This document shows positions 9,430 to 37,511 of a DNA stretch of 37,530 nt, piece after piece. The notes beneath the pieces are model-generated. The model was not told the DNA's origin, searched no databases, and was given only the letters and a program-made list of their open reading frames with translations. Origin of the DNA: a virus; the IMG/VR virus record IMGVR_UViG_3300009139_000003, positions 1 to 37,530 of that record. The stretch is one strand, 5' to 3'. Within the stretch, counting starts at the first letter, position 1, and every line of letters starts with the position of its first letter. The position numbers and the translations under genes were made by a program.

Positions 9430-9450
9430 TTTATTTTTTTGGGATAGTGT

Positions 9451-9524
9451 CCGGTAAGGCTGGACTTGCACCAGCGACTTTCAAAGTTCTAGGTTTGACG
9501 CTCTACTACCTGAGCTACCCACCG
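9451..9524 (-). tRNA. tRNA-like gene with an 8-base anticodon loop
   Basis: The cloverleaf is clear. The acceptor stem is CGGTGGG with CTTACCG (7 bp, two G-U), the D stem GCTC/GAGC, the anticodon stem TCAAA/TTTGA, the variable loop AAGTC and the T stem GCTGG/CCAGC. The anticodon loop is CCTAGAAC, eight bases instead of seven (9493-9486). Aligned from the 3' side the anticodon would be AGA with T33; from the 5' side it would be TAG. The T loop TGCAAGT lacks the usual TTC start, and ACA rather than CCA follows the discriminator. It is either a functional non-standard tRNA (frameshift-type or decoy) or a decaying one. Confidence 0.65.
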
Positions 9525-9533
9525 GATAAGAAA

Positions 9534-9612
9534 TGGCCGGTGAGGCTGGATTCGAACCAGCGACCACATGAGGCGGTTCGCCTTGGTGCTCTACCTACTG
9601 AGCTACCCACCG
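9534..9612 (-). tRNA. tRNA-like gene with disturbed anticodon arm, CCA encoded
   Basis: The acceptor stem CGGTGGG/CTCACCG, D stem GCTC/GAGC, T stem GCTGG/CCAGC with the canonical loop TTCGAAT, discriminator G and an encoded CCA are all present. The 25 bases between D and T stems do not form a normal 5-bp, 7-base-loop anticodon arm. The best fold is AGGCG-AAC-CGCCT, or CCA+AGG paired to CCT+TGG with an unpaired CATG insert that leaves the 7-base loop CGAACCG. The identity is therefore undetermined. Acceptor, D and T stems match the neighbouring tRNA-like gene, so the two look like duplicates with different anticodon arms. Confidence 0.7.
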
Positions 9613-9613
9613 G

Positions 9614-9656
9614 AGGTGTAGCCCCGAACTTGCTACCTGCGTCGTACTGGGCTACC
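9614..9656 (-). other. short tRNA-like hairpin beside the tRNA genes
   Basis: On the minus strand GTAGCCC (9655-9649) and GGGCTAC (9624-9618) form a perfect 7-bp stem, followed by A and CC as in a tRNA acceptor end. Only 24 bases lie between the arms, including a GTTCG resembling a T loop. It may be a tRNA remnant with internal deletion or a leader processing hairpin of the tRNA transcript. Confidence 0.4.
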
Positions 9657-9744
9657 TAATAACTATAAAAAAAGGAGTTCCGCCAATTTGTGATAGCTAC
9701 TAGACAGTCAATATACAGATCCCATAGATAAAATCAAGAAAACT

Positions 9745-10296
9745 TTAGCAGGCTATCTCATCGTACCAAAGTTGAGTGGCAAACATTTTCTTGCCTGTAA
9801 AATGAACACCTACCCCTAACGTCAAATGGTCTGGCCTTACGATGTTCGCCCTGTGTCCAGGACTATTCATCCACGCTGACATCAAGGACTTGATAACATC
9901 ATCAAGAGTCGAGACGTTTTCGACTATAAAAGGAGCAACGCTGTTGTCTAGGGTGATACTGACAACATTATCACTCTTAAAATCTAGAACCGCCACGTTC
10001 TCACCTCTAGCGAAAATGCAGTTGTGTTCAGGGAATAAAAACTTGTACCTAGCCTCTCTCTTGTCAGGAAATCCATCGTGACTAATAGTGTTTCGTCTCG
10101 CCATTTCTTCCGACCACTTGCGAGCCACTATGCTAACCATCTCGTCTCGAACCATCGGCTCATCCCTGTGGTCGTTTGAATACTCGACAATTAAACGCTC
10201 GGCCTCGTGGACCTTGTCTGCTATGCCCTCGCTAGAAAACGATATTGCTAGAAAAACACCTACCAAATAAGACACAAGAAAATTAGTTGCGATCAT
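9745..10296 (-). CDS. secreted CAP-domain (SCP/PR-1-like) protein
   Basis: 183 residues. A hydrophobic N-terminus (FLVSYLVGVFLAISFS) acts as signal peptide or membrane anchor, and a CAP domain follows. CAP signatures are visible: a helix with ARKWSEEMARRN followed by ISHDGF (His), RGENVAV (Glu), and AWMNSPGHRANIV (second His). Length fits a single CAP domain. The ATG at 10296 has AGAGGAG upstream. CAP proteins are common in bacterial envelopes but unusual in phages. Its position beside the endolysin suggests action in the periplasm or outside the host cell; substrate unknown. Confidence 0.85.
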   Translation of the reverse strand: MIATNFLVSYLVGVFLAISFSSEGIADKVHEAERLIVEYSNDHRDEPMVRDEMVSIVARKWSEEMARRNTISHDGFPDKREARYKFLFPEHNCIFARGENVAVLDFKSDNVVSITLDNSVAPFIVENVSTLDDVIKSLMSAWMNSPGHRANIVRPDHLTLGVGVHFTGKKMFATQLWYDEIAC

Positions 10297-25944: not shown

Positions 25945-27507
25945 CTAGTTCTTAACTTGCGGTGAGCCAATGGCAGCCGCCTTGACCAAGCCCTGCATGT
26001 TACCCATAGCCTCATTCACGACTGTACCTAGATCTTGAGGGGTTGTGTTTATGGTCAAGTTCTGCTCTGCACTCACGTTACTGACCGATCTACCTATATC
26101 CTGAGGAGGTATTACGCCCTCACCCTGTTCACCTTCGCCAAATCCCATCATTAGCTCTGCCCTACTAACGGGACTAAAGTCTGCCGACTTGATTTCCCTA
26201 TTATCTTTCCCGTACCTGCGACCCATGGCCAGACCGATTACGGATTTTCTGCCGTCGAGGAATGCACCGTAATCTTCTAGTAGTAATAGGAGTCCGCTAA
26301 CTAGAGTTGTTATAGGCATCATCGCGGCAAGGACAAGACCCGCAGCCACTCCCATAATCTTGAATGATTTATCCATAACTGCAGCTAGGGATGGAAACTC
26401 TTTCTTGAAAGTTTCTATAGTCTCAAACCCTGCAGTAAAGAGGGCTCCGAAACTTTCTGTCGCTCCATCTAGAGCCTTTGTGATCACTTGAATGGACTTA
26501 GTTAGAGGGGCCAAGAACGGACCGCCTATCTTTTCACCGATCTCAACTATCGTATCGCCAAAGTTGGATAGAGATTGGTTAAATGTACCCATTTGCTTTT
26601 TCATGGCGTCTTTGAATCTACCACTTCGGAGCAATTCGATAGCTTTAACTATATCCTTGAAGCCAACCGCGCCTTTGGTGATCAACTTATCTAGAGCCTC
26701 ACCGGAGATAGCCTTTCCGTTTTTACCGAAGACCTGCTTCAGTGCATCGAATACAGGAATACCGGCTCGACCGAACTGACGGATATCTCGCGTAAAGGCT
26801 TTGCCAACGTTTTTGATTTCGATCATGTTTGTCAACATTCGACCGAATTCCACACTATTGCCTTGAGTCACATCACCTAGCTGTTCGAATAGAGGGACGA
26901 TTGCGCCCTCATCAAATCCACCACCGAGTGCTTGAGTTGACAATTTTCTTAATTGAGTAATGGCAAACGGAGTTCTCTTGGCAAAGTCCGTCAAGGTATC
27001 TAGATGCTCTTTAGCCTTCTCAGGGTTACCGAGGAGACCTTCGAACCTTTTTTCCATAGTCTCTCGATCGCCTGCAACCTTAACGGCTGCACCTACTGCG
27101 AAACCACCGGCTAGACCGGCACCTCCAAGTAGAGCGGATGTAAGTGCAGTACTGCCGAGAGCCCTACCTGCAAGGAATGCAGCCGAATTCCCCAAACTCA
27201 CACCGCCACGTCCCCCACCGCCACCGCCGCTACGTCCACCGCCTCCACCGCCTTGCCTGCGAGCGGTGGCCATGGCTGCAGCGTTTTGGGTTCGGTATCG
27301 CTTGACTTGATCGTTGAGTCTTTTCCAACTGTCCTTGATTCCTCCAATTCTATTCCGCTCGGCTTTCGCGAAAGCGATAGAGGATTTTTTCACTGCCGAA
27401 AAGGATTTACCTAGAGACTCGACGGATTTTTTCGCTGCCTTTACCTGCTTGGTATCGACCTCATATTTCCATCTAGTGACTAAGGTTTTTACTATCTTTT
27501 TCGACAT
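25945..27507 (-). CDS. tail tape measure protein
   Basis: 520 residues, short for this family; at about 1.5 angstrom per residue the tail would be near 80 nm. The N-terminus is basic and helical (about 1-75), followed by a Gly/Arg linker (QGGGGGGRSGGGGGGRGG), a hydrophobic stretch (ALLGGAGLAGGFAVGAAV) and a conserved tape measure domain with TDFAKRTPFAITQLRKLSTQ and DIRQFGRAGIPVFDALKQVFG. A second hydrophobic region lies near 385-420. Its first 17 bases are duplicated at the start of the HNH gene upstream, whose stop overlaps this start codon (TAATG). Confidence 0.92.
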   Translation of the reverse strand: MSKKIVKTLVTRWKYEVDTKQVKAAKKSVESLGKSFSAVKKSSIAFAKAERNRIGGIKDSWKRLNDQVKRYRTQNAAAMATARRQGGGGGGRSGGGGGGRGGVSLGNSAAFLAGRALGSTALTSALLGGAGLAGGFAVGAAVKVAGDRETMEKRFEGLLGNPEKAKEHLDTLTDFAKRTPFAITQLRKLSTQALGGGFDEGAIVPLFEQLGDVTQGNSVEFGRMLTNMIEIKNVGKAFTRDIRQFGRAGIPVFDALKQVFGKNGKAISGEALDKLITKGAVGFKDIVKAIELLRSGRFKDAMKKQMGTFNQSLSNFGDTIVEIGEKIGGPFLAPLTKSIQVITKALDGATESFGALFTAGFETIETFKKEFPSLAAVMDKSFKIMGVAAGLVLAAMMPITTLVSGLLLLLEDYGAFLDGRKSVIGLAMGRRYGKDNREIKSADFSPVSRAELMMGFGEGEQGEGVIPPQDIGRSVSNVSAEQNLTINTTPQDLGTVVNEAMGNMQGLVKAAAIGSPQVKN

Positions 27508-27989
27508 TAGATTACCCTCCCATAGGTTTTACCTTTTAGGAGCTGATTGATTGTCTGCTTTGAAACATTGTACCTCTTAGCTATGGAGATTTGTGTCTCG
27601 TCTTTCGACGCCCTCCGAATTTCTCGCACTTGAGGGTCCGTAAATTTGGAGTTGTACAGCTTCTCTCCGTGGCCTTTTAGTCCAATATCTACCGCGTGAG
27701 CTTGGTTCTCTCTGGGTGTAACCCACTCTAAGTTAGACAACCTATTATCGCCCTTGTCTCCATTTTTGTGGTTGACTTGGGTGAGTCCTAGGGGATTGGG
27801 GATATATGCGTCAGCTAGAAGTCGGTGCACCAAAAAAGTTTTAGTTTTTGGTTTTTGATATAGTGTGACCTTAGGATATCCGGCAGTGGTTTTGCTATTG
27901 GTAAGCAAACCTCCCCTGAATCCCAGTCGCTCTACGCTGCCATCCCTGTGGATGACATACTTCTCAAATCCGACTATCTTTTTCGACAT
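27491..27989. repeat. 17-base direct repeat flanking the HNH insertion
   Basis: ATGTCGAAAAAGATAGT occurs on the minus strand at 27989-27973 (HNH start) and at 27507-27491 (tape measure start). The ribosome sites just before (GAGGGAAAT and GAGGGTAATCTA) are also alike. The repeat spans exactly the HNH gene, as expected if the mobile gene entered at the tape measure start. Confidence 0.85.
27507..27989 (-). CDS. HNH homing endonuclease with C-terminal HTH
   Basis: 160 residues. The HNH core is visible in HRLLADAYIPNP, QVNHKNGDKGDNRLSNLEWVT and PRENQAHA, and a helix-turn-helix (SIAKRYNVSKQTINQLLKG) follows for DNA recognition. It lies on the same strand inside the tail operon, between the tail chaperone and the tape measure. 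Its first codons (MSKKIV) copy those of the tape measure protein, and its end supplies a new ribosome site for that gene. This is a free-standing mobile gene, not a virion component. Confidence 0.92.
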   Translation of the reverse strand: MSKKIVGFEKYVIHRDGSVERLGFRGGLLTNSKTTAGYPKVTLYQKPKTKTFLVHRLLADAYIPNPLGLTQVNHKNGDKGDNRLSNLEWVTPRENQAHAVDIGLKGHGEKLYNSKFTDPQVREIRRASKDETQISIAKRYNVSKQTINQLLKGKTYGRVI

Positions 27990-35365: not shown

Positions 35366-35478
35366 AATTTCCCTTATTGCAATATTAACGTATTAGATTC
35401 TACACGACTATGCCCAGTTTACCAACTAAAACACTCACTCACTGCCCTAGTGAGATACTAGAACAGTGAGAAATGGGC
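35366..35478. other. intergenic region with competing hairpins
   Basis: After the portal stop the arm CTCACTG (35438-35444) can pair either with AGTGAG (35449-35454) or with CAGTGAG (35464-35470), two exclusive folds. On the minus strand GAGTGTTTTAG follows, so one fold could act as a weak terminator or processing site between portal and protease. No gene is visible in these 113 bases. Confidence 0.45.
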
Positions 35479-36897: not shown

Positions 36898-36938
36898 GCT
36901 ATAAGTCCTTTCCCATAAGGGTTTTGAGGAGTTCTGTT

Positions 36939-37511
36939 ATGAAAAAATGCACTAAATGCGGTGTCGAAAAGTCTATCGATTCTTTCTCTAAGGATTGTAC
37001 GCGCAAAGACGGACATATCTCGTATTGTAAGGTCTGTAAAAACCTTCAAGCAAAGAGTTACAGGCAAAACAATAAAGAGAAAATTAAGTCCAGTCATGGG
37101 AAGTGGAGGCAGAATAACATCCAACACATAAAAAAGAAGTCCGCTGAATACAGCAAGAGGCCTCACGTTAAAGAGCTGCGTAGGGCGCATTCGTTGAAGC
37201 ATAAGGAGGCGAGACGCCCGATACACAGAGACAGAATGTCGATCTATAGAGCCACTAGAAACGGATACACTGAGAGACATAGAGCGTATAAGCTCCTCGG
37301 TGCCGACTATGAAACAGTCTGGAAGCACCTTAGAAAAACTTGGCGTGAAAGATATGGTAGGGAGCTTCGCCCCTCCGATACATTCGAGATAGATCACATC
37401 ATCCCTACTTCTTATATTGTCGATCACCATTATACTAATCTCCAACTCCTCACACCTAAAGATAATTCTGAAAAAGGTGTATCTTTCGACATTGGCGACC
37501 TCTTTCCCTAG
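36939..37511 (+). CDS. HNH endonuclease with N-terminal zinc knuckles
   Basis: 190 residues from the ATG at 36939, with GAGGAG upstream; the frame reaches 36924 but that start has no ribosome site. The N-terminus carries two Cys pairs, C-xx-C (KKCTKCG) and C-xx-C (YCKVCK), which bind zinc. The middle is long, basic and helical (about 50-115). The C-terminal HNH core is FEIDHIIPTSYIVDHHYTNLQLLT with PKDNSEKG. It is on the opposite strand to all structural genes and lies between portal and the region where terminase is expected, so it is most likely a mobile homing-type endonuclease. Confidence 0.9.
   Translation: MKKCTKCGVEKSIDSFSKDCTRKDGHISYCKVCKNLQAKSYRQNNKEKIKSSHGKWRQNNIQHIKKKSAEYSKRPHVKELRRAHSLKHKEARRPIHRDRMSIYRATRNGYTERHRAYKLLGADYETVWKHLRKTWRERYGRELRPSDTFEIDHIIPTSYIVDHHYTNLQLLTPKDNSEKGVSFDIGDLFP

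What the first reader, a model, noticed from the sequence alone, without database searches (positions are those of the whole stretch)
9451..9656. Two tRNA-like genes with abnormal anticodon arms, plus a tRNA-like mini hairpin
Both genes keep complete acceptor, D and T stems, which would not survive if they were merely decaying, yet the anticodon arms are off. One has a perfect 5-bp stem with an 8-base loop (CCTAGAAC), the geometry of +1 frameshift suppressor tRNAs. The other cannot form a normal arm and appears to carry an extra CATG. A neighbouring hairpin keeps only an acceptor-like stem and A-CC end. A phage might use such molecules for recoding, as substrates or decoys for host anticodon nucleases, or they may be degenerate duplicates.
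Basis: partly seen in the sequence, partly recalled or inferred. Interest (0 to 1): 0.72.

Follow-up and report, generated by a model that had tools for sequence, protein, structure and literature searches.

The report
Phage tRNA bodies without usable anticodons
A phage carries two tRNA-shaped genes whose codon-reading arm is malformed; two related phages and many other viruses carry similar ones while sampled bacterial genomes do not, so these may be tRNA-shaped RNAs kept for something other than reading codons, although decay of these two copies is not excluded.

Summary
The observation largely holds. On the minus strand, 9451-9524 (A) and 9534-9612 (B) are tRNA bodies (Rfam tRNA 46.8 and 47.2 bits) with full acceptor, D and T stems. 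Neither has a canonical 5-bp/7-nt anticodon arm, and deleting the surplus bases does not restore one. The mini-hairpin is not distinguishable from chance. A also has tertiary and 3'-end defects; B is clean and encodes CCA. A and B are paralogues: stems differ at 1 of 32 bases, anticodon arms do not align.

Of 31 viral relatives found through the portal protein, two (L015, L017) have a tRNA body, directly after the portal gene, with 15- and 18-nt anticodon loops and some compensatory stem changes; none has a detectable normal tRNA. Intact bodies with wrong-length anticodon regions recur in IMG/VR (6 of 114 in one sample) and were absent from 367 bacterial genomes by the same pattern. The KVP40 phage group has conserved 110-125-nt examples filed as pseudogenes.

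Best reading: non-decoding tRNA mimics, kept for the acceptor/T half. A role as decoy or processing signal is inference. Plain decay of A and B remains nearly as likely. Frameshift-suppressor, intron and Y-RNA readings are not supported for the window.

The parts
9451..9524 (-). tRNA-like element A: 7-bp acceptor stem (9 bp if the flanking bases are counted), D and T stems, 8-nt anticodon loop; followed by ACA (9448-9450)
   Evidence: Rfam tRNA 46.8 bits, E 4.9e-8; ARAGORN tRNA-???; MFE -26.7, z -1.9
9481..9498 (-). A anticodon arm TCAAA-CCTAGAAC-TTTGA; loop at 9486-9493
9534..9612 (-). tRNA-like element B, body canonical, G73 and encoded CCA (9534-9536); an eighth acceptor pair C(-1):G73 is possible with 9613
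   Evidence: Rfam tRNA 47.2 bits, E 3.7e-8; ARAGORN tRNA-Val(aac); MFE -34.5, z -3.1
9562..9587 (-). B anticodon/variable region, 26 nt instead of 23: ACCAAGGCGAACCGCCTCATGTGGTC; CATG bulge at 9567-9570
   Evidence: no deletion of 3 nt restores a canonical arm
9618..9655 (-). mini-hairpin, 7-bp stem GTAGCCC/GGGCTAC; not shown to be tRNA-derived
   Evidence: 11 of 200 shuffles fold as well; similarity to B p about 0.06
9710..9737 (-). promoter-like site TTGATT-16-TATATT upstream of the mini-hairpin, B and A
   Evidence: consensus match only, 9 of 12; 7 sites found in the region against 3.0 in shuffles
9745..10296 (-). upstream gene on the same strand, CAP-domain protein (context, not part of the element)
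   Evidence: Pfam CAP, E 4e-9

Best explanation
The elements belong to a scattered set of phage tRNA mimics that do not decode. They are genes for tRNA-shaped RNAs whose acceptor/T half (and in B the elbow and CCA end) is kept while the anticodon arm is free to change in length and sequence. Shown: intact stems, no assignable canonical anticodon arm, paralogues that share stems but not arms, relatives with enlarged loops and some compensatory stem changes, an excess in viral contigs. Inferred: they are transcribed, trimmed by the host tRNA-processing enzymes, and act through proteins that recognise the acceptor/T half, either as decoys for tRNA-targeting defences or other tRNA-binding factors, or as processing signals in phage transcripts.
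For: Rfam tRNA hits with full stems. A and B differ at 1 of 32 stem bases and 6 of 18 other body bases, while their anticodon regions align no better than shuffled sequence (body versus arm p 0.004; stems versus rest p 0.006). Neither arm becomes canonical on deleting the surplus bases. Among 31 viral records linked by the portal protein, the RF00005 search found hits over the cut-off in two only, L015 and L017, and these have 15- and 18-nt anticodon loops, intact 5-bp anticodon stems and a body directly 3' of the portal gene. L015/L017 show three double compensatory pair changes (acceptor, anticodon stem, T stem) and three one-sided ones, against two acceptor pairs that are broken in one or the other. 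In IMG/VR, 57 of 84 abnormal bodies have 7/7 acceptor pairs against 1.6% when 3' strands are shuffled. Wrong-length arms: 6 of 114 viral bodies; 0 of 249 Pseudomonadota and 0 of 118 Bacteroidota genomes, with 52 normal matches in 60 of the former; Fisher p 0.0016 using the extrapolated cellular count.
Against: No expression data. No orthologue of A or B themselves was found. A carries tertiary and CCA defects typical of decay. L015 and L017 acceptors each contain one mismatch. The viral excess could come from relaxed selection on phage tRNAs; some of the six long-core bodies may be class II-like tRNAs. The pattern search fixes D and T motifs, so only the acceptor stem is an independent test. 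Using only the directly counted cellular matches (0 of 52), the contrast is not significant (p 0.18).
Confidence: 0.4

Rival explanations
1. Degenerate duplicates: one acquired phage tRNA gene was duplicated and both copies lost decoding; the stems look intact because the decay is recent.
For: A has lost G18, T55 and CCA; Rfam scores are below those of most ordinary phage tRNAs seen here, which run from 48 to 72 bits; presence is sporadic among relatives.
Against: Differences between A and B are concentrated outside stems and in the anticodon arm; B's body and CCA are intact; the relatives L015/L017 show compensatory changes.
Confidence: 0.36
2. Processing punctuation: tRNA bodies mark RNase P/RNase Z cuts in phage polycistronic transcripts, so the anticodon arm is unconstrained.
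For: L015 and L017 carry the body directly 3' of the portal gene on its strand, followed by a T-run and a TATAAT-containing stretch. RNase P recognition through the acceptor/T half is established knowledge.
Against: D stems are kept although RNase P does not need them. In the window the elements follow a CAP gene and are not inside a clear operon. Most relatives lack a body after the portal gene.
Confidence: 0.12
3. Decoding tRNAs with unusual arms, for example a +1 frameshift suppressor (A, 8-nt loop) or an intron-containing tRNA.
For: A has the 8-nt loop geometry; L015 gives a canonical Asp(GUC) loop if 8 nt are removed.
Against: Only 8 of 76 abnormal bodies tested, and neither A nor B, become canonical on deleting the surplus. 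B has no U33 in the ARAGORN or the folded reading. A lost G18 and T55.
Confidence: 0.06
4. Y-RNA-like molecule: the T arm of B, the paired acceptor halves and the D arm of A form the permuted tRNA module of YrlA.
For: Rfam YrlA match over 9499-9566, 31.6 bits, E 4e-4; the joint fold pairs B's 3' acceptor with A's 5' acceptor (-64.2 against -61.3 kcal/mol for two separate cloverleaves).
Against: Far below the gathering score of 69; the same kind of match appears over tandem tRNA bodies in KVP40 (29.8 bits); no TROVE/Ro protein among the window ORFs scanned with Pfam (not every ORF was scanned).
Confidence: 0.03

Closest known systems
tRNA-Other of Bacillus cereus (PMC3399842)
   Same: Predicted pseudo-tRNA that does not function in translation yet has a biological effect when deleted.
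   Different: It has a Trp anticodon and is chromosomal; the window elements are viral and have no usable anticodon arm.
Annotated tRNA pseudogenes of phage KVP40 (tRNA-Pseudo-3, -4, -5) and 'tRNA-OTHER' genes of related phages
   Same: Full acceptor, D and T stems with a non-canonical anticodon region.
   Different: They carry 39-47 extra nt with a shared hairpin; the window elements carry 1 and 3 extra nt and no such hairpin.
Phage tRNAs with anticodon-loop mutations that evade tRNA nucleases (PMC10264068)
   Same: Phage-encoded, altered anticodon loops.
   Different: Those are substituted tRNAs proposed to decode; these have wrong-sized arms and no assignable anticodon.
+1 frameshift suppressor tRNA such as SufB2 (PMC7803779)
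   Same: Extra nucleotide in the anticodon loop, as in A.
   Different: SufB2 is an otherwise functional tRNA; A has other defects, and B is unlike it.

Membership tests
tRNA (body) | 7-bp acceptor, 4-bp D, 5-bp T stems | tested here: met
decoding tRNA | 5-bp anticodon stem with 7-nt loop, U33, purine 37 | tested here: not met
   A has an 8-nt loop, B a 26-nt region; deletion of the surplus does not restore it
decoding tRNA | G18-G19 and T54-T55-C56 elbow bases, CCA end | tested here: inconclusive
   B meets all; A has A18, G55 and ACA (sequence)
+1 frameshift suppressor tRNA | 8-nt anticodon loop on an otherwise functional tRNA | tested here: inconclusive
   loop size met by A only; the rest of A is damaged; function not testable here
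intron-containing tRNA | removal of one contiguous insert gives a canonical anticodon arm | tested here: not met
   A and B fail; L015 and several KVP40-type genes pass
Y RNA (YrlA) | Rfam YrlA gathering score and a TROVE-domain partner | tested here: not met
   31.6 bits against 69; no TROVE domain in the ORFs scanned
tRNA pseudogene (plain decay) | substitutions spread without regard to structure | tested here: inconclusive
   1 of 32 stem bases against 6 of 18 other body bases between A and B speaks against it, but this is one pair of paralogues and A has lost conserved elbow bases
non-decoding pseudo-tRNA (tRNA-Other-like) | transcribed, matured, not used in translation | not testable with these tools
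   needs RNA from infected cells

The most novel reading that the evidence does not exclude
Phages use tRNA bodies as scaffolds for a widespread, undescribed class of non-decoding RNAs, with the anticodon arm replaced by variable or structured payloads, maintained by selection on the tRNA fold.
Probability: 0.25. Interest if true: 0.8.

Novelty: new variant of a known kind. Interest (0 to 1): 0.5.

Why it matters
Annotation tools label such genes as pseudogenes or miss them (ARAGORN finds neither L015 nor L017 nor the KVP40-group element of phage QD01). If they are selected tRNA mimics, a share of phage 'tRNA pseudogenes' would be functional RNAs, directly testable in isolated phages such as the KVP40 group, and relevant to how phages meet tRNA-targeting defences.

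Tried and rejected
Close DNA relatives of the window: none in the phage collection. PolA, exact arm patterns and a body-specific pattern in IMG/VR: no relatives. The nearest isolate by PolA, the Silvanigrella phage CP017838 (30%), has no tRNA. Homologues of the tRNA neighbourhood in portal-relatives: none beyond weak lysis-region hits in L296. Excision of an insert to restore A or B: fails. YrlA: below threshold. The 70-aa plus-strand ORF 9447-9659 reads as the usual antisense translation of tRNA sequence and was not pursued. Integration site: no integrase among the ORFs scanned, but not every ORF was scanned. Some phage matches without annotation (Dinoroseobacter DFL12phi1, Aeromonas ZPAH1, MW202545) turned out to be ordinary tRNAs.

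Full report
What is there. Two tRNA bodies lie in tandem on the minus strand, B (9534-9612) upstream of A (9451-9524). Rfam scores them 47.2 and 46.8 bits; ARAGORN calls one Val(aac) and cannot assign the other. Acceptor, D and T stems are complete in both. A has the 5-bp anticodon stem TCAAA/TTTGA with the 8-nt loop CCTAGAAC. B's 26-nt region folds as ACCA-AGGCG-AAC-CGCCT-CATG-TGGT, with CATG bulged. B has the normal elbow bases, G73 and an encoded CCA. A has lost G18, has G at position 55 and ends in ACA. For the hairpin at 9618-9655, 11 of 200 shuffles fold at least as well and its resemblance to B has p about 0.06, so I set it aside. A promoter-like site stands upstream at 9737-9710, but the scan finds such sites freely.

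Paralogues. A and B are copies of one body. Their stems differ at 1 of 32 bases and the rest of the body at 6 of 18, while the anticodon regions align no better than shuffled sequence. Uniform decay of both copies would not give this pattern; either the stems are constrained or the arms were replaced. This is one pair only, so the statistical weight is modest.

Relatives. The window is a 37.5-kb IMG/VR record of a tailed phage with portal, major capsid and DUF2213 genes; no close DNA relative is in the phage collection. Portal-based scans gave 31 viral records and two bacterial MAGs. Among the viral records a search with the tRNA family found hits over the cut-off in two only, L015 and L017. 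In both the body lies directly after the portal gene, on its strand, and is followed by a T-run. Their anticodon loops are 15 and 18 nt. L015 and L017 are 81% identical over 2.8 kb; their stems show three double compensatory changes, three one-sided changes, and two acceptor pairs that are broken in one or the other. Eleven other relatives in which the same next gene follows the portal gene lack a body there. So tRNA bodies are sporadic in this group, and all four that were found have abnormal anticodon arms. Most of these records are fragments, so absence elsewhere in them proves little.

How general. Of 124 bodies held (the window and L015, L017 included), 40 are near-normal tRNAs with a long variable loop and 84 are abnormal; 57 of the 84 pair 7 of 7 in the acceptor, which the pattern does not impose beyond its last base, against 1.6% in shuffles. 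Among 72 with at least six acceptor pairs, 35 keep a perfect 5-bp anticodon stem, against 5% in shuffled cores. With a pattern open to normal lengths, 6 of 114 viral bodies had cores of 31-41 nt and the rest 22-23. The same lengthened pattern gave nothing in 249 Pseudomonadota and 118 Bacteroidota genomes, while 60 of the former held 52 normal matches. Fisher p is 0.0016 with the cellular count extrapolated to 249 genomes and 0.18 with the directly counted 52. Some of the six may be class II-like, and IMG/VR rows are not a random sample. Divergent contig pairs (L065/L164, L083/L087) share non-canonical arms while acceptor and T stems change on both sides; L083/L087 may be an Ile tRNA with a bulged stem.

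KVP40-type genes. BLAST with the window bodies led to Vibrio phage QD01, where a 113-nt body is missed by ARAGORN. It is the gene annotated in KVP40 as tRNA-Pseudo-3, present at 95-100% identity in 30 records and in a diverged form in phages 6E35.1a and D482. Between KVP40 and D482 five of seven acceptor pairs changed on both sides, none broke, and the insert was kept. KVP40 Pseudo-4 and -5, D479 and Cronobacter phage S13 carry further genes of 113-124 nt whose inserts share a hairpin followed by GCA. In several, removing the insert at position 28/29 leaves a canonical arm: Asn(GUU), Arg(UCU), and one reading AGG. These look like intron-like insertions or scaffolded payloads, and they are conserved, not decaying. 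They show that the label 'pseudo' can be wrong for such genes; they do not prove anything about A and B, which lack the insert.

Mechanism. I favour non-decoding tRNA mimics kept for the acceptor/T half (0.40). Whether they act as decoys or as processing signals is inference. Cas12a3, for instance, contacts the acceptor stem, T arm and CCA tail of tRNAs and tolerates loss of the loops (PMC12851939), which shows that defences able to see such molecules exist, not that this phage meets one. Plain degeneration is nearly as likely for A and B (0.36), because A has real defects and no orthologue exists to test selection directly. A precedent for a functional non-translating pseudo-tRNA is tRNA-Other of Bacillus cereus (PMC3399842).

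Verdict. The frameshift idea is not supported. The finding opens onto a broader and testable pattern in phages, which is where its interest lies.

Noticed in passing
KVP40 AY283928 179301-179416, 180967-181090, 181101-181213 (L318 11302-11417, 12968-13091, 13102-13214); D482 (L314 694-803, L321 206-461), D479 (L322 4-409), Cronobacter phage S13 (L319 306-548): tRNA-like genes of 110-124 nt with conserved inserts in the anticodon arm that share a hairpin followed by GCA; four distinct genes carry the insert at position 28/29 and several become canonical when it is removed. Annotated as pseudogenes or tRNA-OTHER; possibly an undescribed intron-like element.
   Followed up: partly
L065 1596-1669 and L164 7671-7744: Nearly identical non-canonical anticodon arms (23 of 25) on bodies whose acceptor and T stems differ by compensatory changes.
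   Followed up: partly
Rhizobium phage RHph_Y65 MN988525 139117-139176 (L308 701-760): An unannotated tRNA-like match beside a TROVE-domain (Ro-type) protein gene, a possible phage Y RNA.
   Followed up: no
window 27507-27989 (-) and 36924-37511 (+): Two HNH endonuclease genes, HNH_3 and HNH_4, one beside the portal gene.
   Followed up: no
window 35366-35478 (-): The gap after the window's own portal gene holds a strong 14-bp hairpin (z -3.3) where L015 and L017 carry a tRNA body.
   Followed up: no
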